Of a DNA stretch of 64,000 nucleotides, positions 34,000 through 55,612 are shown piece by piece. Under the pieces are notes generated by a model. It ran no database searches. It saw only the letters and a list, made by a program, of their open reading frames with translations, and had not been told where the DNA came from. The stretch is from NCBI RefSeq assembly GCF_000364225.2, contig NZ_AQFT02000001.1, positions 5,328,001-5,392,000 of the forward strand, given 5' to 3'. This stretch comes from Eubacterium plexicaudatum ASF492. Lineage in GTDB: Bacteria; Bacillota; Clostridia; Lachnospirales; Lachnospiraceae. Every line of letters begins with the position of its first letter. The first letter of the stretch is position 1. The translations under genes and the position numbers were made by a program.

Positions 34000-34671
<672 letters not shown>

Positions 34672-34930: not shown

Positions 34931-35650
34931 ATGAGAATGGTATTAAGCATGAGAAAAACAAAATATTTTTTTGCGGTAGCAATAAGCCTGCTTGCAGTTT
35001 TGTTTTTTGGGGTAAACAAGGCAGAGGCGGCTTCCGGACTGGCGCTTTTTAATTTTGAAACTGCGAATGATATGAAAGTTGCAAAAGGCACAAAGATTGA
35101 TCTGGCGGGAGATAAAAATGCGTCTTCCTGGACGTCCGACAATCCAAAAGTTGTAAAAGTTTCCTCAAAAGGGGTAGCAACCGCAGTGAAAACCGGAAAG
35201 GCAGTTGTTTCAGCCAAAATCAACGGGCAGAAAAAAGAATGCACAATAACGGTTGTTAAGGATGTGGTAAAAGGAAGCAGTTATATTAAAAAGATATATA
35301 AAACATGGGAGAATCCGGAAAGTGGTAAAAAGGTCGTAATAAAATCCGGAAATTTAAAAAAGGGATTGGATGACTTTTTATCTTATGTAGAAAGAGAAAA
35401 TGATGATGAGGTTGTCTATAAAAAATGCACAAAGATTATTGCGGTAGAAGAAGACAGTGCAGGAGCAACCGTTTACTTTGAAGCTTTGGGAGTTCTTGAT
35501 GGAAAAGAACAGAAGTTTCCTTGTGTTGCCGTCTTTACAAATGATTATGAACATGAAGAGTATGATTATGCTCTTATGCTTCAGCCGGTGATTTGGATTA
35601 CGGATGACAATCAGCTGCTGTATGGGGCAGGCTGCTTCTGGTATGCGTAA
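34931..35650 (+). CDS. Secreted protein with bacterial Ig-like (BIG2) domain
   Basis: 239 residues. A signal peptide at residues 1-33 (KYFFAVAISLLAVLFFGV, cleavage after AEA) precedes a BIG2 domain of about 75 residues (SSWTSDNPKVVKVSSKGVAT, GKAVVSAKINGQKKECTITV). The remaining 130 residues are unassigned. AAGGAG precedes ATG 34931; the same frame is open back to 34697 but upstream codons fall in the invertible segment and lack gene character. It is the first gene behind the invertible segment, and its stop overlaps the start of the kinase gene (TAATG). Confidence 0.8.
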   Translation: MRMVLSMRKTKYFFAVAISLLAVLFFGVNKAEAASGLALFNFETANDMKVAKGTKIDLAGDKNASSWTSDNPKVVKVSSKGVATAVKTGKAVVSAKINGQKKECTITVVKDVVKGSSYIKKIYKTWENPESGKKVVIKSGNLKKGLDDFLSYVERENDDEVVYKKCTKIIAVEEDSAGATVYFEALGVLDGKEQKFPCVAVFTNDYEHEEYDYALMLQPVIWITDDNQLLYGAGCFWYA

Positions 35651-37653
35651 TGGCGGGCAAGATTTGTTTTTGGTGCTTTAAGTCAAAAGGAAATCAGGCG
35701 GTATGTCCACACTGCGGTTATGCACAGGGCAGTGAGCCGGAGCAGGCATATCAGCTTGCGCCTGGAACGGTGCTGCATAAGCGGTATGTAATAGGCGTCA
35801 GCATTGGTATCGGCGGGTTTGGCATTACTTATAAAGCATTTGATGCTATGCTTCGAATGATTGTAGCTGTCAAGGAATTCTATCCGGCGGGACTTGTGAA
35901 CAGGGGCGGCGGAGAGAAAAAGTAGGTATTTTTTCGGGTGAAAAAAAAGCGGAATTTCAAAGACAGCTGGCGCGTTTTCTGGAAGAAGCCAGAAATATGG
36001 CTCTTTTTTCAAAGGAACAGGATATTGTTAATGTCTATGATTATTTTGCGGAAAACCAGACCGCTTATATTATTATGGAATATGTGAATGCGCCGCTTTT
36101 GAAGGATGAACTGAAAAAGCGGCGGTTTTCGCCGCAGGAAGCAGGCGGATATATGCTGGCGATCCTTGAAGCACTGGAGAAAGTTCATAAGAACAATATT
36201 ATACATAAGGACATCAGTCCTGATAATATTTTTTGACAGGCCCGGGTACGATAAAGTTGTTTGACTTTGGAGCCGCAAGGCTTCAGGGATCGGAACGCAC
36301 CGAGGCAGTTGTTGTAAAGGCTGGCTATACACCGCCGGAGCAGTATACGTCGCAGGATGTGCAGAGTCTTAGCATGGACATCTATGCGGCTGGGGCGGTA
36401 TTTTATGAAATGCTCGCAGGTATCAAGCCGGTGGATTCCAGAGATCGCGTAGTAAAAGATGAATTAAAGACGCTGAGTGAGTGCGGAACACGTACGGATG
36501 AATATTTGCAAAGAATTGTTTTTAAGGCAATGGCGTTGGAACCGCGGCTGAGATTTCAAACTGCCGCCGAATTTAAAGAAGCTCTGATTCATCATAAAAA
36601 AGTGCTTCTGCCGCAGGAAGAACTTCGAAAACATCGAAGAATGAAGCGGATTTTGGCGGCAGTGCTGGCAGTGGTTTTTATTGGAGCGGGAGGCGCGCTG
36701 ACGCTTGGACTGACTGTTTTTTCGGGCAGAGGGAAAATAGACGTGGCAAAACTCGAAGAGGAAGAACTTTCGGTATGGCTTTCGGTGCCGGATGCTGCAT
36801 CCGCAGAGGCATTGGCTGAGACGTTTTTGGAAAGTATACGGCGGGTATGTCCGCAGCTTACGGTAAAGACGGAAATTGTGGATAGAGAGAGTTATGCACA
36901 AAAGATTGCAAGTGCCGCAGAGCAGGGGATGCTGCCGGATGTATTCTGTACGGATGAACTGGATCCGTCTTTTTTGAAAGAGCAGCAATGTGCGGAACTT
37001 TCCAAATTGCTGCGCACGATGGAACTTTCAGATTATCTGTATTTGGAAGACTTAAAAAAGAGGGAGACGTGTATGCGCTTCCGACAGCTGTGCAGACAGG
37101 TATTGTATATGGCAGCCAGGCAAAAACAGAACTTTTACAGTCGTCTGTTACGCTGGATACGCTGGCGCAATGGGGCGGCAGTCTGGGCTATGCGGATACG
37201 CAGGATGCGTTTGCGAGGTTTCAAGATCCGGATGACCCGATTGCCTGGATTGTAGGCGATCTGTCAGATATGGACGCGATAGAAGAGGTTACGGTAGAAG
37301 CGGTGCCATCTACCGATTTTTCAGCAGTGCCGCTTGTAAAAGAAGAAAAACTGATCGGAAGCATGGAGCATTGGTATGCTGTCAAAAAGAGTGAAGATGA
37401 AAACAGGCAGGATGCATGCATGACGGTGCTGTCGCTGTTATTGAGCGAAGGCATGCAGAGTGCCGCGTACATGAATAACAGAGATGGACTGCCGTTAAAC
37501 CGGGCAGTGCTGGACAGTTATAAAGAAAACAAACTGACTACCTATTTGAATTTTCTTAAGGACTATAATCCGGAAGAAATACAGTTTTATAATGGAGACG
37601 ATTTATGCAGCACAGTCAGGCAGGAGACTGAAAAACTGTTAAATAACAGGTAA
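35650..37653 (+). CDS. Transmembrane Ser/Thr kinase with extracellular solute-binding-like domain (three indels)
   Basis: Restored length 668 residues. A zinc ribbon opens the protein (CFWCFKSKGNQAVCPHCG). The kinase domain (about 35-290) shows the glycine loop IGIGGFGITYKA, the lysine in IVAVKEFYP, a catalytic HKDISPDNIF (Lys in place of the HRD Arg), DFGAAR and YTPPEQYTS. A membrane segment (ILAAVLAVVFIGAGGALTLG) leads to an extracytoplasmic domain of about 300 residues that resembles ABC solute-binding proteins (MLPDVFCTDELDPSFLKE, VYALPTAVQTGIVYGSQ). One base each is missing at 35917-35921, 36229-36234 and 37054-37059. An outside ligand may thus control phosphorylation of the secretion apparatus. 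Confidence 0.85.
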
Positions 37654-37669
37654 AAGGACGGAGAAATTA

Positions 37670-38649
37670 ATGAAATATCGGATTCATATCAGAGGATCTA
37701 ATGTAACGATCAAAGCGAAACTGGCGCTTGGTGAAAAAATTAATGAAAGAGAAGTAGATTACTTGCAGAAAAATTCCGTACCCGGATTTTTTCAGATCAC
37801 ATATGATGGAAAAAAGCAGCTGATGTATGACGCACCATGCTCGTTATCGTTGGAAAAATATTTAAAAGATACGAAAAGCACGATAGAAGAAAAGGATTTT
37901 GGAAAATGATGACGCAGATGCTTGATGTGGAAATCGCAGCGCAAAGCAGGGGGTTGTATCCGGATCATATGCTGATGAAGCCGGATGCGATATTTATGGA
38001 AGAAGATACGTTAAGGATGTACTTTGTATACGAGCCGGTGACAGGGGCAAAAGATCTGTCATACAATCTGTTTGCGCTGATTCAGGATATCATATATCAG
38101 GAAATGAAAAAAAACGGCGGAAAAGGGCCGGATTATCTGATTGATTTTCAAGATTATCTGCAGCAGGGAGATTATCGGCTGGAACATGTCCGACAGTATA
38201 TTGGCCAGGCATCTGCAGGAAGGCGGCCGGGCATTGGCAGTCAGGCAATGCAGCAGCCGGTCAGGGAAACGGATTCGGAAGAACCGGAGCAATATACGGT
38301 TATGTTAGGCAGCAGAGGCAATGCAGAGCCTGCTGTGCAGCCGGTGAAGAAGAATATGCAGCTGATCCGGGTGCGGACAAGAGAGCGTACGGTATTCTCT
38401 GGTGATATTGTAAAAATAGGCAGATCCGTTCAAAATACATACTGCATTACCGGAAATACATCTATTGGAAGGAATCATGCGGCGATCGTAAGGCGCGGAG
38501 ATGTCTGTTACTTAAAAGATATGGGTTCTGTAAACGGGACGTCGGTAAATGGAAAGCGGCTGGCAGAAAATCAGGCATGCAAGCTGCACAGCGGAGACAG
38601 GATTCAGCTGGCTGACGAGGAATTTGTATTTGAACTTCAGTTACGGTAA
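37670..38649 (+). CDS. DUF6382-like plus FHA protein, candidate EssB counterpart (one indel)
   Basis: Restored length 326 residues. Residues 1-185 resemble DUF6382 and have a shape like the pseudokinase domain of EssB/YukC (LMKPDAIFMEEDTLRMYFVY, a helix-rich LIQDIIYQEM). Residues about 235-326 form an FHA domain with GRS, the GRNHAAIV loop and SVNGTSVNG, the residues that bind phosphothreonine. One A is missing at 37903-37906. It lacks a membrane segment, unlike EssB. ACGGAG precedes the ATG. It may dock on kinase-marked partners of the secretion machine. Confidence 0.75.
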
Positions 38650-38675
38650 ACACGTACGGCAAAAGAGAGGTAGTT

Positions 38676-38879
38676 ATGAATATAGAAGATATTGCGCAGC
38701 TTTTGCTGTCGCAGCAGGCAATTTTTATTTACGAAATCATTATTTTGGCTGTATTGGTTATATCAATTATTCTGCTGTCTAAAAAGCGGAAGCTGAGAAA
38801 GCAGATTCAGATATCTGCACAGCAGAGGCAGGTAAAAAGATCTTTAGATGACTCGCTCGCAAACCAGAGGCGGAGGTAA
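38676..38879 (+). CDS. Small single-span membrane protein
   Basis: 67 residues: one membrane helix (IFIYEIIILAVLVISIILLS) near residues 17-35, then a highly basic tail (KKRKLRKQ). AGAGAGGTAG precedes the ATG. It lies between the FHA protein and EssC with almost no spacing, so it is probably a subunit of the secretion membrane complex, filling the place of EssA-like small proteins. No family could be named. Confidence 0.7.
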   Translation: MNIEDIAQLLLSQQAIFIYEIIILAVLVISIILLSKKRKLRKQIQISAQQRQVKRSLDDSLANQRRR

Positions 38880-38886
38880 TGGCCAG

Positions 38887-41800
38887 ATGAACATTATTTT
38901 ATCAGTATATGCAAAGGATGCATTTCGGGAATTTCAGCTTCCGTCTGTGAATAATGCTGATTATACACTTACGCTTCGAAGCGATTTTTTTCACTTAAAG
39001 AAAAACAGAAATATTTATCTGGAAGTGATGGACCATGTGTGGAGCTTTAAGCATAACAGGGGTTACAGCATTCGAAAGAACGGAGCGGCATATGAGGGAT
39101 ATGAGCTGGCGGATCAGGATGTTTTAAGCCTGCTTATTGAAGAAGAAAAAGAGATTGTTTTTATTGTAAAGTATGTGGGTTCGCTGTTTCATGCATATGA
39201 AAAATTTTCTTTGGCCGGTGTGAGTCAGATTACGATTGGCGAACAGGCAGACAATGATATTGTTTATGATTTTATGAAGCTTGTTTCACGCAGACATGCG
39301 GCGTTTGTTCGTGAAGGGGCAGGCTTTAAGCTGCTGAATAACAGCCTGAACGGTACTTATGTCAATTCTTACCGGATTGATAAGGAACGGCTGTTAAGTC
39401 CTGGTGCATGCATTGATATTATGGGACTGCGCATGATTTACTTAGGAAGCTGTCTTGCAGTTGATACAAAAGGAAGCAAAGCGCGGATTAATGTAAAGAA
39501 GCTAAAGGCAATGCCGAAAAAGCAGACAGCAGATTCCGGACAGGCGCGTGAGACAACGTTGCTGTCTCACGGAAAAACAGTCTATCACCGTTCTCCGCGT
39601 ACATTTCACGAACTGTCGGATGGGGAGATAGAGATTGAAGAGCCGCCGCAGGTAGAACGGGAAAAACCGCAGCCGCTCCTGCTTACGATTGGGCCTTCTT
39701 TTACCATGACACTTCCTATGATTGCAGGATGTATCCTTATGATGTCGCCGTCTTCGGGCGGCAGTGCCATGTCTATGTATTCAGGACTTGTTATGTCAGT
39801 GTCATCCGCGGTACTCGGTGTATTCTGGGCAGTCCAGAATATCCGGCATCAAAAGAAGCAAGAAGCGGAGAACAGTAAAGTAAGGTTTGAAAGCTACAGC
39901 GAATATTTGCTAAAGAAAACAGATGAGATTAAGGATAAGTATGAAAATGCTTCCCGCAGCTTGTTTGACATGTATCCGGATGCCGGAACATGTCTGTCTT
40001 ATGATGAGAGCAGCGGTCTTTTGTGGAATCGGAATACGACACACAGAGATTATTTAAAGCATCGGCTTGGCATGGGAAATGTACCGTTTCAGATTTCGAT
40101 TCAGGCACCAAAAGAAAGGTTTTCGATTTACAAAGATGAGCTGGCGGATAAGCCTCGTTTTATAAAAGAAAATTACGATGTGCTTTATGATGTCCCGGTA
40201 GTGCTAGATCTGGCAAAGCATCAGCTGATCGGCATCGTAGGCGGTGCACAGAAGGCCGGTGCGATTGAAATTGCCAAGCTGCTGGCTGCTCAGATGGCGG
40301 CAAATAACTGTTATACGGATGTAAAGCTTGGCTTTATTTATGACGGGGAAGCTTCCAATGAGGAAAAAGAATGGGCATTTGCAAAGTGGCTGCCGCATGT
40401 GTGGTCAGAGGATAAGAAAACACGTTACTGCGCTGCAAGCGCCGAACAGGCGAGTGATGTATTTTATGAGCTGACCAAAGTGTTTCGTACCAGGCTGGAG
40501 GAAGAGCAGCAAAATCTCGGAACGAAAGAACAGCTTCCAAAGCCTTATTATGTGCTGTTTGTGTCTGATATGCACATTCTGGAAGGCGAGCTGATTGCCA
40601 GATATATTTTTGATAAAGACCATGCGGCCGGACTTACGACATTTATTTTGGCAGAGCGTTATGAGGATCTGCCGAATGCCTGTGATTTTGTCATTGAAAA
40701 TACGGCCAGATATCAGGGCATGTATGAAGTTGTCCTTGGAGAAGAAAAGGGACAAAAAATCCGGTTTGACCAGGTGGATAGTTTTCGCCTGGAACGCTTT
40801 TCCAGACATCTGGCAACGCTGCAGGTACAGGAGATGGAAAAGGGCGGAGAGATACCGAATGCACTGACGTTTTTCGAAATGCTTGGCGTGTCAAAGCCGC
40901 AGGAGCTTCCGGTCAAAGAACTGTGGGCGAAAAACCGGACATATGACAATATCAGGGGCATGATAGGCGCGAAAGCCGGAGGCGTGCCGTGTTATCTGGA
41001 CGTACATGAAAAATACCATGGGCCGCACGGACTGGTTGCCGGTACGACAGGTTCCGGAAAATCAGAGACGCTTCAGACATATATGCTGTCATTGGCGGTT
41101 AACTACAGTCCGGATGATATAGGATTTTTATTATAGACTATAAGGGCGGCGGTATGGCAAATCTGTTTGACGGACTGCCGCATATGGTCGGACAGATTTC
41201 GAATCTGTCCGGCAACCAGGTCAGACGTGCGATGATTTCGATTAAGAGTGAAAACCGCAGGCGTCAGCGTGTTTTTACGGAACATGGCGTGAATAATATT
41301 AATCTGTATACAAGGCTGTATAAAAACGGAGAAGCCACGCTGCCGGTGCCGCATTTATTTATAATTATAGACGAATTTGCAGAATTAAAGAGAGAAGAAC
41401 CCGATTTTATGAGGGAGCTTATCTCTGTGGCACAGGTTGGACGAAGCCTTGGCGTACATATGATTCTGGCGACGCAAAAGCCAAGCGGTACGGTAGACGA
41501 TAACATATGGAGCAATTCCAAGTTCCGTCTTTGTCTGCGTGTGCAGGACAGACAGGACAGCAACGATATGCTGCATAAGCCGGACGCGGCGTATATTACG
41601 CAGGCAGGCCGCTGCTATCTGCAGGTCGGCAATGATGAGGTGTACGAGCTGTTTCAGTCCGGCTACAGCGGGGCGGCTTACGAAGAAAATGTCAATATGG
41701 GCAATACGGAAATTGCCAAAATGCTCAGCCTGAATGGAACCGTGGAGATGACAGGCAATTCGGCAAAGCTTTCACAGAAGCAGAAAGTAGAATATCTGTG

Positions 41801-43870
41801 GCTGGAAGTACTGGCAGAATGTATGGACCTGGCACAAAAAGCGGCTAAAATAACGGTGGAAGAGTGCCAGAACAAGCAGCAGCTTGGCCGTCTGGTTCAT
41901 GCGATGTATAAGGCGATGTGGTTTGAAAAGCTGGATTATCCGGTCAGCAGGTACAATACGGACCGGCTGTGCGATTTTTTGCTGCTGTATAAAAAGTATG
42001 GGCGGTGAAGCCAGACCACCATGCCGTCTTATCAGAGATGATGGAGCAGTCGGTTGCGGGCAAAGTGAAGATGCCGCAGAAAAAGGAAAAAACACAGCTG
42101 GATGCCGTGAAAGAATATCTTGCCCGGATGGCAAAAGAATGTGGGTATGATTATCACATGCAGTTATGGATGCCGGTGTTGCCGGGGCATATTTATTTGC
42201 AGGAATTTGCGGAGTTTGCCGGCCGCTGTTATAAAGACAGAAGCTGGCCAGGACAAAGCGGGGCATGGAGTCTTGAGATCGTAACAGGCAAAATCGACGA
42301 TCCGGCAAACCAGAATCAGATGCCGTTATTTTTGGATTTTGCGAAAACGGGACATCTAGCTGTTTTTGGGAGCATTGTAAGCGGAAAGAGTACGATGATG
42401 CAGACGATTGCTTATGCGCTGATTCACCGCTATACACCGGATCTGATACATTTGTATGCGCTGGATTTCAGCAGTAAGATGATGTCCGCGTTTGAAGAAG
42501 CTCCGCATGTGGGCGGTGTCATGTATGAAAATGATATGGAGAAAATCAGCAAATTTTTAACATGATGGAAAGTATTCTGCAGGAACGAAAGACTTTGCTG
42601 CGTGGTGGAAATTACAGCCAGTATGTACAAAAAAACGGTGTGACAATGCCGGCGATCGTAATCTTTGTAGATAATTACGCAGCATTCAAAGAAAAGACAG
42701 ATGAGAAATATGAAGATATTATGATTACGCTGTCAAAAGAAGGCGTCAGCCAGGGTATTTCCTTGTAGTTTCAGGAAATGGCGTCGGCATGAATGATGTT
42801 ACTTCCCGCGTATGTGAAAATATTTCAACGGGTTACTGTCTGCAGTTGCAGGAAAATATGAATATACGGACCTGCTGCATACAAACCAAATCGAGGTAAT
42901 GCCGGAAAGCGGCATGAAGGGCAGAGGACTTATTGACTATGAGGGACGTATTCTGGAATTCCAGGCAGTGCTGGCAGTCAAGGCGGAAAACGATTATGAA
43001 CGTATGGAAATGATACGTGCACAATGCGAAGAGATGAAACTGGCATGGACAGGAAAACCGGCGCGTCCTGTGCCTGAAATACCGAAAAAGCCGGTATGGT
43101 CAGAGTTTCATAAGCTGGACGATTACAGAAAGCAGCTTGCAGATAAAAATGTGCTGCCGGTAGCATATGATATGTCAAATGCACAGGTGTATGGAATTCA
43201 CTTGCGAAACAATTACTGTTATACGGTATATGGAACGGCACACTCCGGAAAGACGAATTTCTTAAAAGTATGTCTGCAGGCAGCGCTGGAGAAACGTGCG
43301 AATATTTGCGCTATTGACAATGAAGCGCATGATTTTCACAGCTATGCATCCGCAGGTATACATTATGTGGAAGATGATAAGGGGCTGTATGAATTTTTTG
43401 CACAGCTTCTGCCGGTGTTTAAGGAAAGAAATCAGAAAAAGCATGAACTGCAAAGACAGGACTGCGAGGAAGATGAAATATATGAGATTATGTCAGCATA
43501 TGAGCCGTATTTTATCTTTATAGCAGACTTAAAGTCTCTGGTAATGCTGATCAATGATTCTGAGTATGAGATGAAAGGATTTTTCAGAAATATTTTGGAA
43601 AAAGGAAGCATGCATCATATTTTCTTTTTCGGGGCCATTTCGTTAAAAGATCATCAGGAGATTTTTGGCGATGAGCTGTATGAAGCGTTTACCGGATATA
43701 AGACAGGTGTTCATTTCGGTGGAAATACAGCTGAGAACCGGGTGCTGAATTTTGAGTATGTTCCGTATATGGAGCAGACAAAAGTACAGCCGCCGGGTGT
43801 GGGCTGTCTGCCGGATGCCGGAGCCGGGGTGGATACGGCAAAGATCGTCGTGCCGCTGGCCAGGAGGTAG
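38887..43870 (+). CDS. essC: EssC-type FtsK/SpoIIIE ATPase of the WXG100 secretion system (five indels)
   Basis: Restored length 1662 residues. The N-terminus has two FHA-type domains; the second ([33 protein letters not shown]) keeps the Ser/Arg/His and NGT elements. Two membrane helices follow (bases about 39690-39835). Three FtsK-like ATPase domains come next: D1 with Walker [11 protein letters not shown] (41041) and Walker [13 protein letters not shown]2 with [10 protein letters not shown] (42368); D3 with [10 protein letters not shown] (43232). D1 has the Asp/Glu pair and is likely the main motor; D2 (IVIFVDN) and D3 (FIFIADL) lack the Glu. Losses of one base at 41131, 42004, 42554-42558, 42758-42760 and 42851-42856 break the frame. 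GGAGGT precedes ATG 38887. It drives export of the WXG100 proteins encoded downstream. Confidence 0.93.
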
Positions 43871-43876
43871 ATAGCA

Positions 43877-44625
43877 ATGGTTACCATGATCATATACGGA
43901 CCGAGGCGCAGAGAAGCAGAGAGTTTTGGACAGGTCACCAAAGACCTGTTCGCGTATTTGTCAGAAGAAGAGCTTACGATGTATTGTTTTTCCGCATTGG
44001 ATACGGTTCGTAAGTTTCTGAAAAAGAGTGCGCTGCTGGACATGGCATGCGTAGGCATCAGAGGACGCGAAGAAATTGATTTGCTGCATCAGATTCGAAC
44101 ATTATATGCAAAGGCGGAGCTGCTGCTCGTTGCAGATGCGACCGTCTCACCAATGGAATATTTAACGCCGGAGGTGCGTGCGGCGTCTCTGCTGCTGTAT
44201 CCTTATGAGGAAAAGCAGATGAAGCAGGTGCTGCGGGCATTTTTAGGAAGCTGTTTAAAAGACAGGATGCAGGATTCCACAGAAGAAAAAGATTTTTGGT
44301 CATAGAAAACCGGGATGGAAGAACGGCGATTCCATTCAGTCAGATATATTATATCGAGGTAAGAGAACGAAAAATCTTTATCCGGGTCAGAAACAGGGAA
44401 TACAGCAGATATGATTCTATGGAGCATATCATGCAGCAGCTTCCGGAAATATTTGTACGCTGTCACAGGAGCTTTGCGTTTAATATGCATCATCTGGACC
44501 GGGTGCGGCTTTCGGAAAATACGGTTTATCTGGAAGATGGCATGTCGGTTCCGTTATCAAGAAGCTATAAGTCGGCGGTGAAGGAGTATATGCATGGACG
44601 ACATACAAAACGGGAGCAGATCTGA
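43877..44625 (+). CDS. LytTR-family response-regulator-like protein (one indel)
   Basis: Restored length 249 residues. An N-terminal receiver-like domain (VTMIIYGPRRREAESFGQVT, DMACVGIRGREEIDLL) lacks a clear acidic pocket and phospho-acceptor, so it may not be phosphorylated. The C-terminal LytTR domain is complete (IPFSQIYYIEVRERKIFIR, VRCHRSFAFNMHHLDRV, VPLSRSYKSAVKEYM) and binds DNA through beta-strands. One T is missing at 44293-44297. AGGAGGT precedes the ATG. No histidine kinase lies near. It may control the locus itself. The next gene starts inside its last 32 bases. Confidence 0.85.
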
Positions 44626-45241: not shown

Positions 45242-45256
45242 AAGGGGACACTGACA

Positions 45257-45505
45257 ATGATACTGACAGATATTTACATACCGGCAGTAGATGCGAATTA
45301 TGATTTTATGCTGGATGAAAACGTGCCTGTGGTACAGGTTATGGAGGAGATCAGTGAAATGATTTCTAAAAAGGTGAAAGAAAAGAAGCCGGAGCAGATC
45401 AACGATTTTGTGCTGTATTCGATGGATACAGGTACATTGTTAGATCATAATCTAAGCCTTTATACAAATGGAATCCATGACGGAAGCAGACTGATTTTTG
45501 TATAA
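45257..45505 (+). CDS. esaB: EsaB/YukD-like ubiquitin-fold protein
   Basis: 82 residues with the ubiquitin-like pattern of YukD/EsaB: first strand ILTDIYIPAVDANYDFMLDE, helix VVQVMEEISEMISKKV, then YSMDTGTLLDHNLSLY, and the final GIHDGSRLIFV that closes the beta-grasp fold. EsaB proteins regulate or assist EssC-dependent secretion from the cytoplasm. AAGGGGAC precedes the ATG. It is one of the best markers that this is a type-VII-like locus of the Firmicute kind. Confidence 0.88.
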   Translation: MILTDIYIPAVDANYDFMLDENVPVVQVMEEISEMISKKVKEKKPEQINDFVLYSMDTGTLLDHNLSLYTNGIHDGSRLIFV

Positions 45506-45644
45506 TCGGCTGAAAATATGTTATTTGGACATACAAACAGGTCAAGTAATGCAAAACTGTGTCAGCAGTGAGAAATCCTGTTATAGTAATCATCAGCAGG
45601 AGCGATGAAAAACAAAACAGCCGAAAGGTGCCGGAGGATTATGA

Positions 45645-46001
45645 ATGGAAGCTAAGGTACGGTTAAGGCAGGTAATGCGTCTGGCACAGGAGCTGGAGCA
45701 GTGCGAAAAAAAGCTTTCGTCCAATATCGAACGGCTGGACGCTTTGTGCAAAGGCAGATGCAGCCGGCAGATCAAAAAAAAGATGTGTGAACAGAGCGAG
45801 ACTTTAAAAAAGCAGGCCAGCTTATGTAAGGATCTGGCGGCAGTGCTGGAACAGGCAGTGTATCTGTATGAAAAGACGGAAGAGTCTGTCATACAGGCGG
45901 CAGAGACAGATCCAAGACGATATGAAGAAACGCTTCGGGCAGTAAGCCTTGTGGAATGGACGCATATTCCGGTGACATTAGACATAGGGGAGAGACTGTG
46001 A
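45645..46001 (+). CDS. Coiled-coil protein of the secretion locus
   Basis: 118 residues, almost entirely helical, Lys/Glu/Gln-rich (RQVMRLAQELEQCEKKL, ETLKKQASLCKDLAAVLEQA). No WXG turn. GGAGG precedes the ATG, and its stop overlaps the first WXG100 start (TGATG). It may be a partner that pairs with a WXG100 protein or the helical head of an exported complex. The 139 bases before it hold no gene or promoter that I can support. Confidence 0.7.
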   Translation: MEAKVRLRQVMRLAQELEQCEKKLSSNIERLDALCKGRCSRQIKKKMCEQSETLKKQASLCKDLAAVLEQAVYLYEKTEESVIQAAETDPRRYEETLRAVSLVEWTHIPVTLDIGERL

Positions 46002-46303
46002 TGGCAGACAGGATCAGGATCAATACAGACAGGCTGGGAACAGATGCCAGCCGCGTGCAGGGCTATATCGGAAATATTACAAAAGAAATAGCCAATATGA
46101 AGCAGAGCGTTTCCGCATTGGAAAACATGTGGGACGGCCCCGGTCGGAGCGCGTTCCATAAGGCGTTTTGGGATGGTATGCAGGCCATAGAAACGGCGGT
46201 CAAGAGCATGGAAGAGCTGTGCGCGTATAATAAAAATGCAAAAAAACAATACGAAGCCTGTGACAGAAAAGTAGCTTCTCTGATCGCTGAGATCAGGATA
46301 TAA
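46001..46303 (+). CDS. WXG100 protein 1
   Basis: 100 residues beginning MADRIRINTDRLG. The two-helix hairpin is marked by the turn MWDGPGRSAF at mid-length, with WDG as the W-x-G motif. WXG100 proteins dimerise and are exported by EssC. The start overlaps the preceding stop. First of five tandem WXG100 genes. Confidence 0.88.
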   Translation: MADRIRINTDRLGTDASRVQGYIGNITKEIANMKQSVSALENMWDGPGRSAFHKAFWDGMQAIETAVKSMEELCAYNKNAKKQYEACDRKVASLIAEIRI

Positions 46304-46336
46304 AAGAATCAAAATAATGATCGGGAGGGATATAAA

Positions 46337-46654: not shown

Positions 46655-46670
46655 AGTGAGGGCATAGTAT

Positions 46671-46985: not shown

Positions 46986-47052
46986 CAAGCAGAATCTTAG
47001 ATGTAGCACATACATTTCAAGATAAATAAAAAATTAAAGGAGGTCATAACAC

Positions 47053-47358
47053 ATGGCAAACCAATTTACAGTAACTACAGCAGAACTGAACCAGAAAGCA
47101 GGAGAATTACGCGCAAATAACCGCAATCTGACAACACAGATCGAAAATCTCAAAAATCAGCACAGTGCACTGCATGGCATGTGGGAAGGTGAGGCAAAGA
47201 ACGCATTTGATAAAGCATTTAATCAGGATATTCAGCAGATGCACGACTTCTACACCGAAATTAACAAATATGTAGATAAACTGGCAGAGATTGCAAAAAC
47301 CTATGAACAGGCAGAAGCAAGAAACGTAGAGACAGCCCATATAAGAACTTATAAATGA
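47053..47358 (+). CDS. WXG100 protein 4
   Basis: 101 residues as read, the most typical of the set: first helix ELNQKAGELRANNRNLTTQ, turn LHGMWEGEAKNAFDKAF, second helix IQQMHDFYTEINKYVDKLAE. It has the strongest ribosome site of the cluster (AAAGGAGGT), so it may be the most abundant. The frame after its stop codes a plausible 23-residue tail (to 47425) if one A is missing near 47355; I keep the short form because it already has family length. Confidence 0.9.
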   Translation: MANQFTVTTAELNQKAGELRANNRNLTTQIENLKNQHSALHGMWEGEAKNAFDKAFNQDIQQMHDFYTEINKYVDKLAEIAKTYEQAEARNVETAHIRTYK

Positions 47359-47460
47359 GGCGGAGGCTGTAAAAGATATAAATAAACAAACGCTTTCGGT
47401 TATGATGGATTTGGACAAAAAATGATGATGGACACGTTAAAAGAAAGAGAGGACAGATAA

Positions 47461-47778
47461 ATGACAGGAACATTAAAGGTATCAACAGCGAAATTAAGAA
47501 GTACGGCAAGTAATTTTCAGTCAACAGGACAGCATATTCAGAGAATGACATCTGCGATGACAAACATTGTGAATCAGTTATCCGGACGCGTATGGAGCGG
47601 CGAAGCGGCTGATGCATATAAGAGAAAATTCGGACAGCTGCAGGATGATATAAACCGCATGGTGAAAATGATCAACGAGCATGTGACCGACCTGAATGCA
47701 ATGGCAGGTGAATATGAACGTGCAGAGAATGCTAACAAAAATATGATCAATTCATTAAAGGATGATATAATATCATAA
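47461..47778 (+). CDS. WXG100 protein 5
   Basis: 105 residues: first helix STAKLRSTASNFQSTGQHIQ, turn GRVWSGEAADAYKRKF, second helix LQDDINRMVKMINEHVTDLN, ending YERAENANKNMINSLKDD. AAGAGAGGAC precedes the ATG. It is the last WXG100 gene before a strong hairpin, which may raise its message stability over downstream genes. Confidence 0.88.
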   Translation: MTGTLKVSTAKLRSTASNFQSTGQHIQRMTSAMTNIVNQLSGRVWSGEAADAYKRKFGQLQDDINRMVKMINEHVTDLNAMAGEYERAENANKNMINSLKDDIIS

Positions 47779-47795
47779 TTTCAAAAAAGACTACA

Positions 47796-47827
47796 ACAAT
47801 AGGACGCTTGCAAAAGCGTCTTATTGT
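47796..47827 (+). promoter_or_regulatory. Hairpin inside the operon after the WXG100 genes
   Basis: ACAATAGGACGCTT (47796-47809) pairs with AAGCGTCTTATTGT (47814-47827) over 14 bp, with one G-U pair and a GCAA tetraloop of the GNRA type. No T-run follows. It lies between WXG100 gene 5 and the trypsin-like gene and could set unequal expression by stopping or protecting part of the transcript. Confidence 0.6.
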
Positions 47828-47849
47828 GGCAGTTATGGGGAAGCGTAAG

Positions 47850-49475: not shown

Positions 49476-49490
49476 AACAAAGGGGACAGT

Positions 49491-49778
49491 ATGGGAGAAT
49501 TTGAGATTGCTTGTAAAAAATTATCCGGATGGGCAGATAAAATCGACAGCTGCAGTAAAGAAATCAAAAGACAGGAAAACAGGGCAGCGGAGCTCAGCAG
49601 TCAAATGCGGCATCAGGAAGGCAATTACCATGCTGTCGCGCAGGCCTTATTCGGCATTTCACAGGATCTGCACAGGCAGCAGGAACAGATGAAGCAGTAT
49701 GGGAATGTGCTTGAGACGATAGCGAAGGCTTATGAAAGTACGGAAGCGGAGATACAAAACAGCAAAGGGCAGTATTAG
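49491..49778 (+). CDS. Small helical protein, WXG100-like size
   Basis: 95 residues, two long helices (ACKKLSGWADKIDSCSKEIK, FGISQDLHRQQEQMKQYG) around a short turn (HQEGNYHAV) without the W-x-G motif. AAAGGGGACAG precedes the ATG. By size and place it could be a divergent WXG100-fold partner. No firm family. Confidence 0.7.
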   Translation: MGEFEIACKKLSGWADKIDSCSKEIKRQENRAAELSSQMRHQEGNYHAVAQALFGISQDLHRQQEQMKQYGNVLETIAKAYESTEAEIQNSKGQY

Positions 49779-49788
49779 GAGATAACAT

Positions 49789-51650
49789 ATGAAGCGTGAA
49801 AATAATCATAAGATTGTAAAAAATACAAAAAGAAAAACGTATGTCTGATAGCAGTTTTATTTGCACTCATCTGTTTTGCACGGACAGACCGTATGCGGGC
49901 GGAGACGGTTGACGCGGGAGTGCCGCAGGGCCCGCAGTATAATGACGATGCGACGCAGGTTATTTATACAAATATTTTTTTGGAAGTTATCCGCAGTCTG
50001 AGATCAAAGGCTCGGCGCTTACACCTGAGATCACAGGAGCCGCTTATGATAGCTATGGCGACGCCTGGGTAGGTGATGTGAAATACCGTCGAGTCCGTGC
50101 GTCAGATACAAATAATGAGGAACAGTTTGGTACGGAGGAATATCGGTATTTTAAATGGGAACGGATTCGATGGCGTGTATTGTCAAATGATGGAAAAACG
50201 CTGCAGATTCTTTCCGATACCGGACTGGACTGCAAGAGCTATCATGAGATGGGAGCGGCGGTGACATGGGAAGACAGTTCACTGCGCAAATGGCTCAACG
50301 GTGCGTTTTACCGAACTGCGTTTGATAATACCGAGCGCGCAGCGATCGCACGCCAGAGTGTGGACAACTCAGATTATGCAGCCGATGGCAGCGGAGGTGG
50401 TACACAGGATGATATATTTATACCATCTATGGAGGAAATGTCTAATAGAAGCTATGGATTTACCACGGCAGTTCAAAATCCGTCTCCATGCCGCCAAATA
50501 CCGGCAAGCGATTATGCATATGCAATGGGGGCACGCCTTGGTGATGAAGATGGTATGGGAGATCAATGCTGCTGGTGGTGGCTGCGTACACCGGCATCGG
50601 AGGAAAAGGATGCATTTCGATATGCCGCTCTCATAGGCAGTACAGGAGCATTTTCACTGTATGGACTTGTGGAAAATAAATACCGGGCCGTTGTGCCGAT
50701 GCTTCACATTAAGATCGATTCCCGTGCATGGCAGCGGGAAGACGACGCTTCCAGCGGAACCGGAGGCGGAGAAGCAGCGGAAAAGCCGCTGACAGTCAGC
50801 GCACCGAATATGCAGCGCAGCCAGAACGTTGCGGCATTTGATGTCGAGGCCGGCGGCGGGCTTACAGATGACTATGAATACCAGTGGTATTATGCTCCTT
50901 CTGATACGGGAAGCGGACATCCGCTCAGCGAATCGGATTATAAGTCGATCGTATGGCAGGGCAAGGCTTTGTACATTGACTTAAAGGCGGATGACGTGCC
51001 GGACGGACTGTATTTGTACTGTGCGGTCAGCGACGGCAGAACGACAGTGGAAAGCAGCCGTATCTGGTTTTCAAAAAGAAAAAAAGCCAGACGATTACAT
51101 ATAATAAAGGAACGATGGAAAACGACCGGCTGGAATATGGAGCCAGCTTCAGCCTGAAAGCAAAAAGCAACGGGGAAGCGTCTGTGATTTCATATAAAAG
51201 CAGCAATTCTAAAATTGTTTCTGTCAGTAAAACAGGAAAATTAAAAGCAAAAAATTATGGCAAGGCAACGATTACGATTACAGCATCGGATTCACCGACG
51301 GACGAGTACGGAAAAACGACGAAAAAAATAGCGCTGACCGTAGTTCCGCGTCAGGTGCAACTGCAGAAAATTGTCCGCACAAGAAACAGTCAGGGAAAAC
51401 TGGAAAGTGTTTATGTAGAATGGAAAAAGATAAAACGATAGACGGCTGTCAGTACAATATCGCATACAATCAAAATTATACAAACAGCACAAACGGAGAG
51501 AAGGCAGGCAAAGATAATTTTGTACGGTTAAAATATCTGGATGTCAGCAAGGATAAATTGTATATCAGAGTGCGTACATATAAAAAGCAGGGAAGAAGAC
51601 TTATTACGGTAAATGGAGCAAAAGTTACATGCTGGCTATTTAAGGCATGA
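49789..51650 (+). CDS. Secreted DUF6273 plus Ig-like protein (four indels)
   Basis: Restored length 621 residues. A signal peptide (VCLIAVLFALICFA) becomes readable when one A is added at 49833-49837. The middle matches DUF6273 (WERIRWRVLSNDGKTLQILS, SLRKWLNGAFYRTAFDNTER, CCWWWLRTPASEEKDAFRYA, NKYRAVVPMLHIKID), a domain of unknown role common in clostridial surface proteins. A BIG2-like stretch (SYKSSNSKIVSVSKTGKLKA) and a C-terminal beta domain follow. Further bases are missing at 49975-49981, 51079-51085 and 51432-51435. AGGAGAT precedes ATG 49789. It may be a cargo or surface subunit of the system. Confidence 0.75.
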
Positions 51651-51684
51651 TGAAAAACGCTAAAAGCGGGATGGTGGAAGTTCT

Positions 51685-52727
51685 GTGCTAGGAAAGAAGA
51701 AAACGAATAAAAATACAGGATATACCCAAAATTCGAAAAAGGCGCAGCGATTTGCAAAAAAGAGAAGTTGGACGTATGGAACGGGCCATTGGATGAGACT
51801 TATGCACAGCTTGGTGAATTATGTGAACAGCCTCAGCTGCCGGACAGTCCGCAGAGCACAGAGCCAGAGGTACGTACGGCAGAGCTTACGGAATCTAAGG
51901 TAGCCACAAAGCAGCTGGCCGGACAAAAGCATGTGGCACAGCAAAGGGCACAGAACCGTAGCCAGATAGAGATTGGAACGGCCAGTATTATCGGAACGAG
52001 AAAATCGCAGCAGGATTCTGTCTTTGGATACGAGTCCGGCGGACGTGCGATTGGCATTGTCTGTGACGGAATGGGCGGACTCAGCGGCGGAGAGGTTGCC
52101 AGTCGTGTAGCGCTGCAAAGTATTGCGGACGCATGGTTTGCGCAGACGGATGTTTTGAATATTCCTGATTTTTTCAGGAGGGAAGCGGTTTGTGCGGATG
52201 AAAAAGTGTATCTGCAGGAAGCGGCAGATGGAAAACGGCTGCAGGCAGGAACGACGGTTGTGGCGGCAATTGTACAAAGGAATGAACTGTATTGGCTATC
52301 GGTTGGCGACAGCAAGCTGTACTTTATCAGGGGACAAGAAATACTTTCTCTGAATGTCGAGCATAATTACAGGCTGGAATTAAATAAGATGCTGCGTCAG
52401 GGAAAAATGACGGCACAGCAGTATGCAGCCGAGGAATACCGGGCGGAGGCGCTGACCAGCTATATCGGCATCGGTAATCTGTCATTGATGGATATTAATA
52501 AACAGCCATACCTGCTGCACGATGGAGACATTATATTGTTAGCCAGCGATGGATTATACCGGAGCCTGAATGAAGAAGAGATAATATCCATTATAAATAA
52601 AAACCGTCAGGAAATGCAGAAGGCGGCACAGGCGCTGACAGCGGCAGTGGAGGGAAGAAAAAAGCAGGATAATACATCGGTAGTGATTCTTCGGTACCGC
52701 ACAGTATCAAGCGCTTATCGCAAATAA
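51685..52727 (+). CDS. PP2C-family protein phosphatase (one indel)
   Basis: Restored length 347 residues. A variable N-terminal 85 residues precede the PP2C domain: TRKSQQDSVFGYE, CDGMGGLSGGEVAS (metal-binding Asp), GTTVVAAIV, SVGDSKLYFI, ASDGLYRSL and QDNTSVVILR. These are the metal-coordinating aspartates of a Mn/Mg-dependent phosphatase. It should reverse phosphorylation by the two kinases in the locus. The start is GTG 51685; one A is missing at 51756-51761, and a shorter reading from TTG 51768 avoids the break. Confidence 0.9.
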
Positions 52728-52740
52728 CGGAGACAAAGAC

Positions 52741-53379
52741 ATGATTTTAAAAAGATGTGAGTATGGACACTATTATGATGGTGAAATATATCAGCAATGC
52801 CCGGACTGCACAGGAACCGGCAGGAAGACGCAGATGGATCTGTCTGGCATGTCCTATGGAGACTATGCAGATGAAGATACGGTGACTGTTGCACTGCCGC
52901 GCGCTCATGGACAGCAGCCACGCGTGCATGTATCGGCAGATGAAGAACCGGTAACGGTTGCTATGCCGCGCCAGCCGGCACCGGCTGCCAGTCCCGTGCG
53001 AAAGCCTACCTTTAAGCCTGTGGTCGGGTGGCTTGTATGCATTCAGGGAAAGGATTTTGGCAACGGCTTTACAATAAAGCTCGGCAAAAATTTTATCGGG
53101 AGATCTCCGGGTATGGATATCGTACTGCGGGGAGACGAAAGCATCGCAGCGGAAAAGCATGCAGCGATTTACTATGTACCAAAGCAGAGAAGATTTGCGG
53201 TGGAACCGGGAACGACCGGAAAAAGATTTTGCATAAACAGAAATACGGTTCTGCGGCCGGTCTGGATCAAACAGCATGATATTTTAACGATTGGCAATTC
53301 CAGCCTGATGTTTTTCCCGTGCTGCGGGGAACATTTCAGCTGGGAAGAGCTGATCCGAAGGCATAGGGAAAAAGGGTGA
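52741..53379 (+). CDS. Zinc-ribbon and FHA protein with two TVTV-type motifs
   Basis: 212 residues. The N-terminus is a zinc ribbon (CEYGHYYDGEIYQQCPDC). A flexible middle carries two near-identical motifs, DEDTVTVALPR and DEEPVTVAMPR, the first a good Ser/Thr kinase target. A C-terminal FHA domain follows (NFIGRSPGMDIVL, ESIAAEKHAAIYY). This layout resembles GarA/Odh-inhibitor type proteins in which a phosphorylated N-terminal Thr binds the protein's own FHA domain. It lies directly between the phosphatase and the PASTA kinase and is a good candidate substrate of both. Confidence 0.83.
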   Translation: MILKRCEYGHYYDGEIYQQCPDCTGTGRKTQMDLSGMSYGDYADEDTVTVALPRAHGQQPRVHVSADEEPVTVAMPRQPAPAASPVRKPTFKPVVGWLVCIQGKDFGNGFTIKLGKNFIGRSPGMDIVLRGDESIAAEKHAAIYYVPKQRRFAVEPGTTGKRFCINRNTVLRPVWIKQHDILTIGNSSLMFFPCCGEHFSWEELIRRHREKG

Positions 53380-53384
53380 CAATC

Positions 53385-55612
53385 ATGGCAAGATGTATGG
53401 GATGCATGGCGGAAATAGCGGAGGAAGAGCGGATTTGCAGATACTGCGGGTATCAGAAAAATACGGATGTAAAAGAAGCTTATTATCTGCTGCCTGGGAC
53501 GATTTTGAAAAATAAATATCTCGTGGGCCGTGTGCTTGGCTACGGCGGATTTGGAGTTACCTACATCGGATGGGATCAGGTACTGCAGCGAAAAGTAGCG
53601 GTCAAAGAATACCTGCCGAGTGATTTTGCAACGAGAAGCTATGGCTCCAGGCGGGTAACCGTATTTTCGGGAGAAGCGGCGGAACAGTTTCAGGCAGGGC
53701 TTGAGAGCTTTTTATTTGAAGCAAGGCGTTTGGCTAAGTTTAATGCGGTTGCGGAGACGGTGGATATTTATGACTGCTTTGAGGAAAACGGCAGCGGCTA
53801 TATTGTTATGGAATATCTGGACGGCGCAACGGTAAAGGAAGTGCTGCGTAAAAGAAGGCGTATTTCGGTCCAACAGGCGCGTGCAATCGCGTTATCTGTT
53901 CTGCGCGGTCTTACGGCTGTCCATAAAGAGGGAATTATCCACCGGGATATCGCACCGGATAATATTTTTATTACAAAAGCCGGGAAAGTCAAGATTCTGG
54001 ACTTTGGTGCGGCCAGATATGCGACTGCTGTACAGTCAAAGAGTCTTTCAGTTATCTTAAAACCAGGATTTGCACCGGAAGAGCAGTATAGGAGCCGGGG
54101 TGAGCAGGGCCCATGGACGGATGTCTATGCGCTGGGCGCGACACTTTACTGTATGATCACAGGCAAACGTCCGGAAGAGTCCATTCAGAGACTTGCGCAG
54201 GACAATGTAAAGCCGCCTTCCGAACTTGGTGTCACGATAGATCCAAACATTGAAAATGCAATTATGAACAGTATGAATGTCCGCAGGGAATACCGGATTC
54301 AGGATGCGGAAAGCTTTTATTTAGCGCTGTGCGGAAAAGAAGAGGTAGAACGCATTGTAGAAAAGACAGACGATAAAATGAACTGGAAGCTGCCGCTTTG
54401 GATGAAATGTACGGCAGCGGCAGCTTGCGTGCTTGTGTGTGTCTGCGTCAGCCTGTTTGTGACCGGAAAATTGGGATTTACAAAAAAGGAAATTACAAGC
54501 GCGGATGGAGTTATGGCTTTAAGCGGAGATCAGAGGTATGTGCCAAACGTGTCCGGGATGAGCTATGAAGAAGCGGAGACATTATTAAAAGAAAAAATTT
54601 AAATCTGATGATCAGCGGTATGAACTACAGCGAAACGATTGAAAAAAATAAAATATTGAGCCAGAATCCGAATGACGGATCAATCGCACTGGCGGACGAA
54701 ACAGTGCAGGTCATTATGAGCGGCGGTCAGGAAGAAGTTATGATGCCTGATTTGGCCGGAATGACGAGGGAAGAAGCGCAGCAGTTGATTACAGGACAGA
54801 ATCTGACAATCGGAGCAGACGGAATAAACGAAGAATACAGTGATGTGGTGGAAAAAGGAAGAGTAATCACGCAGAGCATACCTGCGGATGAACGGATCGC
54901 GGTGCAGACACAGATTACGCTGGCTGTGTCGCTCGGAAGCCTGAATGAAGAAACTGCACTGCTGGAAGTGCCTGATCTGACAGGCATGACGAAGGAAAAG
55001 GCGTTAAAACAGTTAGAAAAGTTAAAGGAGCAGGCAGGGTTTACATTTGTGCTTGGTGAAGTAAAAAATAAATACAGCGCGGAAGTGGAAAAAGGGAAAA
55101 TTATCAGCCAGAAGCCGAAGGCAGGCAAAACCGTACGGACGAATGAGCCGATTCGGGTCGTACTGAGCAAGGGGCCGGAGATGGTGCAGATACCGGAGCT
55201 TGTATATCTGACAAAAGATCAGGCGATCGGAAAACTGGAGAAGGCAGGTCTGCAGGCGGAGGTTGTGACAGAATATAGTGAGCAGGCAGCAGCAGGGCTT
55301 GTGATTCGCCAGAGTGGTGAGGCAGGTGCGAAGGCAGCAAAAGGCAGCAGTGTGACGATTACCGTTAGTCTTGGGAAACAGCCTGTGCAGCAGAGCGGCG
55401 GCAGCGCCGGGAATAGCGGCAATAGTGGAAACACAGGAAACAACAGGCCGTCCGGAGGCAGTACAGGGAACAATGGTGCCGGCAGCAGTAACGGAGGTGG
55501 ACAGTCTTCGTCGGGAAATGTGCAGACGCAGCCGGATAATAGCGACAGAGCTGGTGATTCGGATGGAAACCGGGCGATAATGCCGGATGGCGGAAGTTTT
55601 GTTGTGGAATAG
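53385..55612 (+). CDS. PASTA-domain Ser/Thr protein kinase with zinc ribbon (one indel)
   Basis: Restored length 742 residues. A zinc ribbon (CMGCMAEIAEEERICRYCGY) precedes the kinase domain: glycine loop LGYGGFGVTYIG, VAVKEYLP, HRDIAPDNIF, DFGAAR and FAPEEQYRS, all active-site residues intact. One membrane helix (residues about 343-366) leads outside to four PASTA repeats (VPNVSGMSYEEAETLL, MPDLAGMTREEAQQLI, VPDLTGMTKEKALKQL, IPELVYLTKDQAIGKL), which in PrkC/PknB bind muropeptides. A Gly/Ser/Asn-rich tail ends the protein. One A is missing at 54592-54597. ATG 53385 follows AAAGGGTG. It should couple cell-wall state to the secretion system. Confidence 0.93.

What the first reader, a model, noticed from the sequence alone, without database searches (positions are those of the whole stretch)
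34931..55612. WXG100 secretion locus wired to a full Ser/Thr phosphorylation circuit
One co-directional locus encodes EssC, EsaB-like, five WXG100 proteins, two transmembrane kinases with different sensor domains, a PP2C phosphatase and FHA domains on four proteins including EssC. EsaA/YueB and EssA homologues are absent here. Established type VIIb systems have FHA domains on EssC but no such dedicated kinase/phosphatase set. This looks like a distinct subtype in which assembly or export is gated by phosphothreonine.
Basis: partly seen in the sequence, partly recalled or inferred. Interest (0 to 1): 0.82.

Follow-up and report, generated by a model that had tools for sequence, protein, structure and literature searches.

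The report
Five-WXG100 type VII system with kinases
A Lachnospiraceae-type bacterium carries a type VII protein-export locus with five small cargo-type proteins, an EspG-like chaperone and its own kinase and phosphatase genes; related loci share this plan, which the published list of such systems does not appear to describe, although the general idea of phosphorylation control is already in print.

Summary
Window 35650-55612 encodes EssC, YukD, five WXG100-type proteins (one below Pfam's cut-off), two membrane kinases (SBP-like and PASTA ectodomains), a PP2C and four FHA proteins. EsaA, EssA and EssB were not found in the genome (92.9% complete). At least 14 frame breaks split six genes; intact relatives and dN/dS of 0.03-0.21 suggest assembly error or very recent damage.

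EssC belongs to a clade of mostly Lachnospiraceae loci. Of 56 loci with enough downstream DNA, 51 carry five or more WXG100 genes; a kinase or PP2C lies nearby in 30 of 38, against 0 of 10 regions around EssC in EssB-bearing genomes.

Phospho-controlled T7SS (types e, f, j) were proposed in 2024 (PMC11217815); its read text lacks this combination. None of the window's four FHA domains keeps all four phosphothreonine-contact residues, so gating is only partly supported. New variant of a known kind.

The parts
34943..35650 (+). Exported-looking protein with an Ig-like stretch (by eye, not scanned) just upstream; orthologue in the same place in L104 and L111
   Evidence: tblastn 66-70% identity to the L111/L104 ORFs adjoining kinase 1
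35650..37653 (+). Kinase 1: zinc-ribbon-like start, Ser/Thr kinase, one membrane helix, SBP-like outside domain; 3 frame breaks
   Evidence: PF00069 in two pieces; intact 663-706 aa orthologues in L104, L111, L120, L135; SBP_bac_8 in L104, below cut-off; ribbon, VAVK, HKD..N, DFG and helix read by eye
37670..38649 (+). J: DUF6382 + FHA protein (TseJ/TsfJ/TsjJ type); 1 frame break
   Evidence: FHA 62.6 bits; DUF6382 19.3 bits in the window piece, below cut-off, 39.3 bits over cut-off in intact L104; intact 320-350 aa orthologues
38677..38877 (+). 'pre': 67-aa protein, one membrane helix and a short basic tail (by eye); in many relatives fused to a degenerate FHA domain
   Evidence: sequence; found in 30 of 38 loci with both flanks
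38848..43870 (+). EssC/TsxC: FHA N-terminus, FtsK/SpoIIIE ATPase motor; 5 frame breaks
   Evidence: TIGR03928 pieces, Pfam, contiguous alignment to the intact 1675-aa L104 orthologue
43877..44625 (+). LytTR-domain transcription regulator; 1 frame break
   Evidence: PF04397 74.3 bits; intact orthologue in L104
44594..45241 (+). G: EspG-fold chaperone
   Evidence: AlphaFold2 pLDDT 88.6; all 12 Foldseek hits at E<=1e-3 are EspG; VIA Z 10.4-12.8 for 14 EspG entries, next unrelated 5.5
45257..45505 (+). B: YukD/EsaB ubiquitin-like protein
   Evidence: PF08817 38.8 bits, cut-off 27
45645..46001 (+). P: 118-aa helical-hairpin-like protein without W-x-G, possible chaperone client or partner
   Evidence: weak PPE match 20.2 bits, cut-off 26; a P-slot ORF in 42 of 51 loci with G against 2 of 14 without
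46001..46303 (+). WXG100 protein W1
   Evidence: PF06013 40.5 bits
46337..46654 (+). WXG100 protein W2
   Evidence: PF06013 31.4 bits
46671..46985 (+). WXG100-like protein W3 (below the curated cut-offs)
   Evidence: 15.2 bits PF06013, 22.6 bits TIGR03930, both below cut-off; conserved third position
47053..47358 (+). WXG100 protein W4
   Evidence: PF06013 54.4 bits
47461..47778 (+). WXG100 protein W5
   Evidence: PF06013 57.8 bits
47808..49475 (+). Membrane protein: outside trypsin-like domain with degenerate His and Ser sites, one helix (by eye), inside FHA domain
   Evidence: PF13365, PF00498; motif check; K,S,H,N at the FHA sites
49491..49778 (+). Small WXG-less hairpin-like protein (Lap-like?)
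   Evidence: orthologues in the same place in L104 and L135
49976..51640 (+). Surface-type protein, DUF6273 + Ig-like, Sec-type signal in intact orthologues (by eye); 3 or 4 frame breaks
   Evidence: PF19789 77 bits; tblastn to L104/L135; Big_2 in L104 below cut-off; orthologue sequences
51768..52727 (+). PP2C/PPM Ser/Thr phosphatase
   Evidence: PF00481, PF13672; NF033484 Stp1/IreP-like 146.1 bits, below its 230 cut-off
52741..53379 (+). FHA-only protein (fourth FHA), binding residues degenerate (R,A,H,K)
   Evidence: PF00498 27.1 bits
53376..55612 (+). Kinase 2: kinase domain, membrane helix (by eye), four PASTA repeats; 1 frame break
   Evidence: PF00069 122 bits, PASTA x4 165.5 bits

Best explanation
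This is a type VII secretion locus of a branch centred on Lachnospiraceae. Shown: the parts, their order, their conservation and the failure to find EsaA, EssA and EssB. Inferred: EssC is the motor that exports the five WXG100-type proteins, probably as hetero-oligomers; YukD assists the motor; the EspG-like chaperone holds a hairpin client, most likely P, as EspG holds PPE proteins; the LytTR protein controls transcription. Also inferred: the two receptor kinases sense an extracellular solute and cell-wall fragments and phosphorylate machine parts, FHA proteins (J, the trypsin-like membrane protein, the FHA-only protein, EssC) dock on them, and PP2C resets the state. J, whose DUF6382 domain looks kinase-like, would take the place that the pseudokinase EssB has in T7SSb.
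For: Domains. EspG fold. Conservation in the 56 of 80 named loci with at least 9 kb downstream: YukD 55, five or more WXG100 51 (exactly five 46), LytTR 47, G 47. Five conserved WXG100 positions: best match at the same position in 2033 of 2310 comparisons, 22 of the 48 loci with exactly five. LytTR and G come and go together (50 both, 13 neither, 2 mixed of 65) and P tends to follow G. EssC clade at 100% SH-aLRT. Kinase or PPM in 30 of 38 loci with both flanks against 0 of 10 control regions. The genome has a separate stp-prkC pair, so this set is extra. DUF6382 matches the kinase profile at P 8e-5, best of nine profiles. Purifying selection in all ten pieces tested.
Against: No secretion, phosphorylation or expression data. 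No window FHA domain has the full R/S/H/N set. 8 of 38 loci show neither kinase nor PPM in the stretch held. The window's own copy has at least 14 frame breaks while rpoC is intact, so decay in this strain cannot be ruled out. The genome is 92.9% complete, which limits absence claims. DUF6382 against EssB directly is weak (P 0.037). The P-G association ignores relatedness of the loci and rests on an ORF rule: L092's slot ORF looks like a membrane protein, and slot ORFs drawn in L107 and L128 were not counted by it.
Confidence: 0.6

Rival explanations
1. It is simply T7SSe (or T7SSj) of Garrett et al. 2024, already named, with more WXG100 copies.
For: Shares WXG100, YukD, FHA-EssC, membrane kinase, PPM phosphatase and DUF6382-FHA protein with T7SSe/j.
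Against: EssC groups apart from loci with T7SSe composition; five conserved WXG100 positions instead of two or one; EspG-like and LytTR genes are not listed for T7SSe/j. But the T7SSe reference loci here were recognised by gene content, not by name, and the paper's accession lists were not available.
Confidence: 0.2
2. It is an outlying, enlarged form of T7SSi (EssC with FHA, LytR-like regulator, EspG-like chaperone, YukD), reported so far only from Vallitalea.
For: Same EssC-LytTR-G-YukD order in family f104 loci L220-L224, which fit the T7SSi description, including the poor FHA motif (0 of 5 complete); EssC falls with that group and two other loci (L174, L228) at 88% support, order inside unresolved.
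Against: EssC is outside the T7SSi-like clade, not nested, and one search puts T7SSi-like with T7SSe-like loci instead; those five loci show no PPM or kinase in the stretch held and at most three WXG100-like genes, in L223 and L224 none (L223 ends at its contig's end); 9 of 56 clade loci lack LytTR.
Confidence: 0.15
3. The window's copy is a decaying, non-functional locus.
For: At least 14 frame breaks in 20 kb; rpoC unbroken.
Against: The pieces keep 49-100% identity to intact orthologues and dN/dS of 0.03-0.21; the housekeeping prkC of the same assembly is broken too.
Confidence: 0.15
4. Kinases, PP2C and FHA proteins are general cell-wall signalling genes that only lie beside the secretion genes.
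For: Gene content around the core is variable: PPM in 19, kinase in 26 of 38 loci; FHA residues incomplete.
Against: 0 of 10 control regions have them; a stp-prkC pair lies elsewhere; nearly the same order in L104, L111, L120 and L135 as far as the stretches reach (in L135 the FHA-only gene between PP2C and kinase 2 is missing).
Confidence: 0.2

Closest known systems
T7SSe / T7SSj (Garrett, Higginson, Palmer 2024, PMC11217815)
   Same: WXG100, YukD, FHA-EssC, membrane Ser/Thr kinase, PPM phosphatase, DUF6382-FHA protein J, single-helix small protein
   Different: Five conserved WXG100 positions, EspG-fold chaperone, LytTR regulator, P hairpin, trypsin-like/FHA membrane protein, two kinases with SBP-like and PASTA outside parts; EssC apart from loci of T7SSe composition; no clear TseI in the window
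T7SSi (same paper, Vallitalea)
   Same: FHA-EssC, LytR-like regulator, EspG-like chaperone, YukD; same gene order in the presumed T7SSi loci
   Different: Added PPM, kinases, J and other FHA proteins; five WXG100 genes in fixed order after YukD
T7SSb (Ess/Yuk)
   Same: EssC with an FHA N-terminus, EsaB/YukD, WXG100
   Different: No EsaA, EssA or EssB found in the genome; has kinases, PP2C and an EspG-like chaperone
T7SSa / ESX
   Same: EspG-fold chaperone; weak PPE-like match of P; several WXG100 proteins
   Different: EssC type with FHA, not EccC; no EccB/EccE-type Pfam match among the ORFs scanned, not searched genome-wide
T6SS threonine-phosphorylation pathway (recalled; compared in PMC11217815)
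   Same: Kinase, phosphatase and FHA protein beside a secretion machine
   Different: Unrelated secretion machine

Membership tests
T7SS in general | EssC/EccC-type membrane ATPase with WXG100 proteins | tested here: met
T7SSb | EsaA, EssA and EssB encoded in the genome | tested here: not met
   each search is over the cut-off in one of 14 control genomes; genome 92.9% complete
T7SSe | Kinase, PPM phosphatase, YukD and DUF6382-FHA protein J | tested here: met
T7SSe | Two core WXG100 genes (TseA, TseA2) | tested here: not met
   five conserved positions; 51 of 56 loci with five or more
T7SSe | EssC with conserved phosphothreonine motif in the FHA domain | tested here: not met
   window E,S,H,N; clade Arg in 10 of 78, full set in 7 of 78; loci of T7SSe composition 3 of 3 full
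T7SSe | EssC within the TseC clade | tested here: inconclusive
   apart from loci of T7SSe composition, but no named T7SSe reference was at hand
T7SSe | TseI, large Ig-like envelope protein | tested here: inconclusive
   DUF6273-Ig protein of about 650 aa in the window's orthologues; about 2000-aa proteins upstream in some relatives, not analysed
T7SSj | Kinase with TPR C-terminus | tested here: not met
   no TPR match; SBP-like and PASTA outside parts
T7SSi | EspG-like chaperone, LytR-like regulator, YukD, FHA-EssC | tested here: met
T7SSi | EssC within the TsiC clade | tested here: inconclusive
   beside presumed T7SSi loci, not inside; reference identity inferred
T7SSi | TsiM-type component | not tested
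   no TsiM sequence available
EspG chaperone family | EspG fold | tested here: met
EspG chaperone family | Binding of a PPE-type client | not testable with these tools
   only co-occurrence of G and P

The most novel reading that the evidence does not exclude
An unnamed T7SS type of Lachnospiraceae and relatives in which five obligate WXG100 paralogues, and an EspG-chaperoned sixth hairpin, form one multi-subunit secreted or envelope assembly whose export is switched by two receptor kinases (solute and peptidoglycan sensing) and PP2C through FHA docking, with the DUF6382 pseudokinase-FHA protein standing in for EssB.
Probability: 0.3. Interest if true: 0.78.

Novelty: new variant of a known kind. 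Interest (0 to 1): 0.56.

Why it matters
Type VII systems are known mainly from mycobacteria and a few Bacillota (recalled). This branch occurs in 17 of 200 sampled genomes of the window's family, our own included; the family is inferred to be Lachnospiraceae, a major gut family. It is missing from the text that I read of the 2024 catalogue. Its conserved set of five WXG100 genes with an EspG-like chaperone makes a concrete question testable: do WXG100 proteins work as one multi-subunit assembly? It also joins ESX-type chaperone logic with kinase, phosphatase and FHA genes in one locus, so phosphorylation control of type VII export could be tested directly.

Tried and rejected
EssB homology of DUF6382 by direct profile comparison: weak (P 0.037); the kinase profile fits better (P 8e-5). 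The J model's structure searches were filled by FHA domains, so the fold of DUF6382 remains untested; a sequence profile of J reached StkP kinase only at E 0.5. LXG substrate in the genome: none at E<=0.01. Trypsin-like protein as an active MycP-like enzyme: not supported for the window, because the catalytic His and Ser positions look replaced (a crude motif check; a few relatives such as L142 keep the Ser motif). The DUF6273-Ig protein as a T7 substrate: set aside, because intact orthologues carry a Sec-type signal (by eye). Plasmid collection for named references: best hits were EssC of other Bacillota and EccC-type proteins of Actinobacteria, all under 60% identity. Literature for this exact variant: nine searches gave none beyond PMC11217815; one search listed 30 of 131 papers. 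Of PMC11217815 I saw the abstract, Results, Discussion and passages, not the Introduction, Methods, figures or supplements; every other paper I saw only as a search listing with the start of its abstract. Preprints and most subscription papers are not in the library.

Limits of the counts. The 80 named loci are the best 80 of 341 confirmed; 46 of the 80 titles say Lachnospiraceae, the rest are mostly Clostridium, Eubacterium, Blautia or unnamed. Flanks stop at about 10 kb, so kinase and PPM counts are lower bounds (in the window PP2C lies 8 kb past essC). L138 and L140 come from one strain. The ten control regions are 13-20 kb, smaller than most of the 38 loci (about 25 kb), and come from nine genomes; in L270 EssC and in L265 EssB was not labelled. 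One search got 44 of the 45 other genomes that matched (G092 left out) plus G472 and G473. Trees used thinned rows: one search took 70 rows (own clade thinned to about every fourth named locus plus a few chosen ones; short EssC and most G-handle copies left out); one search took 34 of those. Tree references for T7SSe and T7SSi were labelled by gene content. The FHA contact residues are recalled from known FHA structures.


Full report
What is there. The window is bases 5328001-5392000 of contig 1 of a 6.74-Mb, six-contig genome rated 92.9% complete with 7.1% contamination. From 35650 to 55612 the + strand carries, in order: a membrane kinase, a DUF6382-FHA protein (J), a 67-aa one-helix protein ('pre'), EssC, a LytTR regulator, an EspG-like protein (G), YukD, a WXG-less hairpin (P), five WXG100-type genes, a trypsin-like/FHA membrane protein, a small hairpin-like protein, a DUF6273-Ig surface-type protein, PP2C, an FHA-only protein and a PASTA kinase. 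Four of the five WXG100 proteins pass Pfam's cut-off; the third does not (15.2 against 27.3 bits).

Frame breaks. EssC, both kinases, J, LytTR and the DUF6273 protein are split over several frames, at least 14 breaks in all. Intact orthologues in L104, L111, L120 and L135 align from one frame to the next with continuous query positions, at 49-100% identity per piece (kinase 2 was not covered there). dN/dS is 0.03-0.21 in the ten pieces tested. The housekeeping prkC of the same assembly is broken as well, while rpoC is whole. Assembly error is likely; recent decay of this copy is not excluded.

Absent parts. EsaA (TIGR03929) and EssB (PF10140) give no match in the genome at E<=1, EssA (PF10661) only three chance-level matches (best E 0.32). 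Among 46 relatives, EssB passes the cut-off in 0 of 19 genomes with this type of EssC (one weak match of 18.8 bits in G147) and in 9 of 27 with other EssC types (two more weak ones). No LXG protein was found in the genome at E<=0.01. TIGR03928 finds no second EssC, only one other FtsK/SpoIIIE-like match of 111 bits against a cut-off of 778.

The G protein. AlphaFold2 gives pLDDT 88.6. All 12 Foldseek hits at E<=1e-3 are EspG proteins. VIA-align gives Z 10.4-12.8 over 176-189 residues, rmsd 4.3-4.8, for 14 EspG entries; the next unrelated entry has Z 5.5. P tends to follow G: a P-slot ORF is seen in 42 of 51 loci with G and in 2 of 14 without (Fisher p 5e-6, relatedness ignored); LytTR and G agree in 63 of 65 loci. 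P has only a weak PPE match (20.2 bits, cut-off 26). In four of the nine 'G without P' loci the slot holds a gene that the WXG100 models pick up (L098, L124, L125, L133).

Distribution. In 200 genomes of the family, 46 have an EssC match at E<=1e-30, and 17 (our own included) stand apart at E<1e-157. That the family is Lachnospiraceae is inferred: contigs of G143, G142 and G147 have the same lengths as named records titled Lachnospiraceae (L112, L100, L123). The named scan kept 80 of 341 confirmed loci; 46 of the 80 titles say Lachnospiraceae, and titles that tell a source often name rumen, cecum, rectum or faeces. Of 56 with at least 9 kb downstream, YukD is in 55, five or more WXG100 in 51 (exactly five in 46), LytTR in 47, G in 47. 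In 22 of the 48 loci with exactly five WXG100, the best match of each protein lies at the same position in 2033 of 2310 comparisons: five old paralogue groups in a mostly fixed order.

Phosphorylation genes. Of 38 loci with at least 9 kb on both sides, 26 have a kinase, 19 a PPM, 30 either, 15 both, 32 an FHA protein besides EssC, and 8 neither kinase nor PPM. Ten regions of 13-20 kb around EssC in nine EssB-bearing genomes have neither (0 of 10; in L270 EssC itself was not recognised by the model). The genome's stp-prkC pair lies elsewhere, at C1:1122288. Active-site motifs of both kinases and PP2C look intact by eye. FHA contact residues (R, S, H, N; recalled) are K,S,H,N in the trypsin-like protein, E,S,H,N in EssC, R,G,H,N in J and R,A,H,K in the FHA-only protein: none complete. 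In the clade, EssC keeps S/T,H,N in 75 of 78 but Arg in 10 (Lys in 32); other FHA ORFs in the 80 loci are complete in 37 of 52. So EssC binding may be phospho-independent or weakened, while separate FHA proteins of relatives look competent.

Place among known systems. PMC11217815 (abstract, Results, Discussion and passages read) defines T7SSc-j. T7SSe/j have kinase, PPM and DUF6382-FHA protein, and that paper already proposes threonine-phosphorylation control and compares it with T6SS. T7SSi has EssC with FHA, EspG-like and LytR-like genes, and is reported only from Vallitalea. Our locus combines both sets and adds five WXG100 genes. In one search its EssC forms a clade with 100% SH-aLRT; it falls with presumed T7SSi loci and two others at 88%, order inside unresolved, and loci of T7SSe composition lie outside. 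The fasttree version instead groups the T7SSi-like and T7SSe-like loci together beside our clade, so the order of these branches is not settled. A word search of the paper's main text finds no 'Lachno', 'Blautia', 'Roseburia', 'Ruminococc' or 'PASTA', and 'Eubacterium' only in a reference. Nine paper searches found no description of this variant.

Mechanism. Export by EssC with YukD is well grounded by homology. The chaperone role of G is likely from the fold. Kinase, FHA and PP2C control is plausible from co-location and intact-looking active sites, but unproven. DUF6382 looks kinase-like (P 8e-5, best of nine profiles), so J may stand where EssB's pseudokinase stands; the direct EssB comparison is weak (P 0.037), and the fold search did not test this part.

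Noticed in passing
L244 (own genome, C1:4686556): A further kinase gene (445-aa frame with an extra C-terminal part) beside genes that read like CpaB/SAF and TadZ-type pilus proteins (by eye).
   Followed up: no
L090-L094, L103, L113, L149, upstream of 'pre': Proteins of about 1870-2720 aa directly upstream of the pre-essC genes in some relatives; possible TsxI-type envelope proteins.
   Followed up: no
L248 (Agathobacter rectalis plasmid): A T7SS on a plasmid where YukD and a separate FHA protein precede an EssC of 1169 aa, with Imm59-type immunity genes upstream.
   Followed up: partly
window 55587-62974: Two leucine-rich-repeat, BspA-like surface proteins downstream, both apparently split by frame breaks (by eye).
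   Followed up: no
window 34012-34671: Serine recombinase-like gene (by eye) upstream of the locus; an orthologue (80% identity) lies in the same place in L104.
   Followed up: partly
L229, L231, L232: Other families of the order carry EssC-LytTR-(G)-YukD loci with PPM and FHA genes, so the EssC-LytTR arrangement is not limited to the presumed Vallitalea loci.
   Followed up: partly
window 29882-33842: A row of + strand frames ending in a flagellin-type C-terminus, apparently one long broken gene (by eye).
   Followed up: no
   Followed up: no
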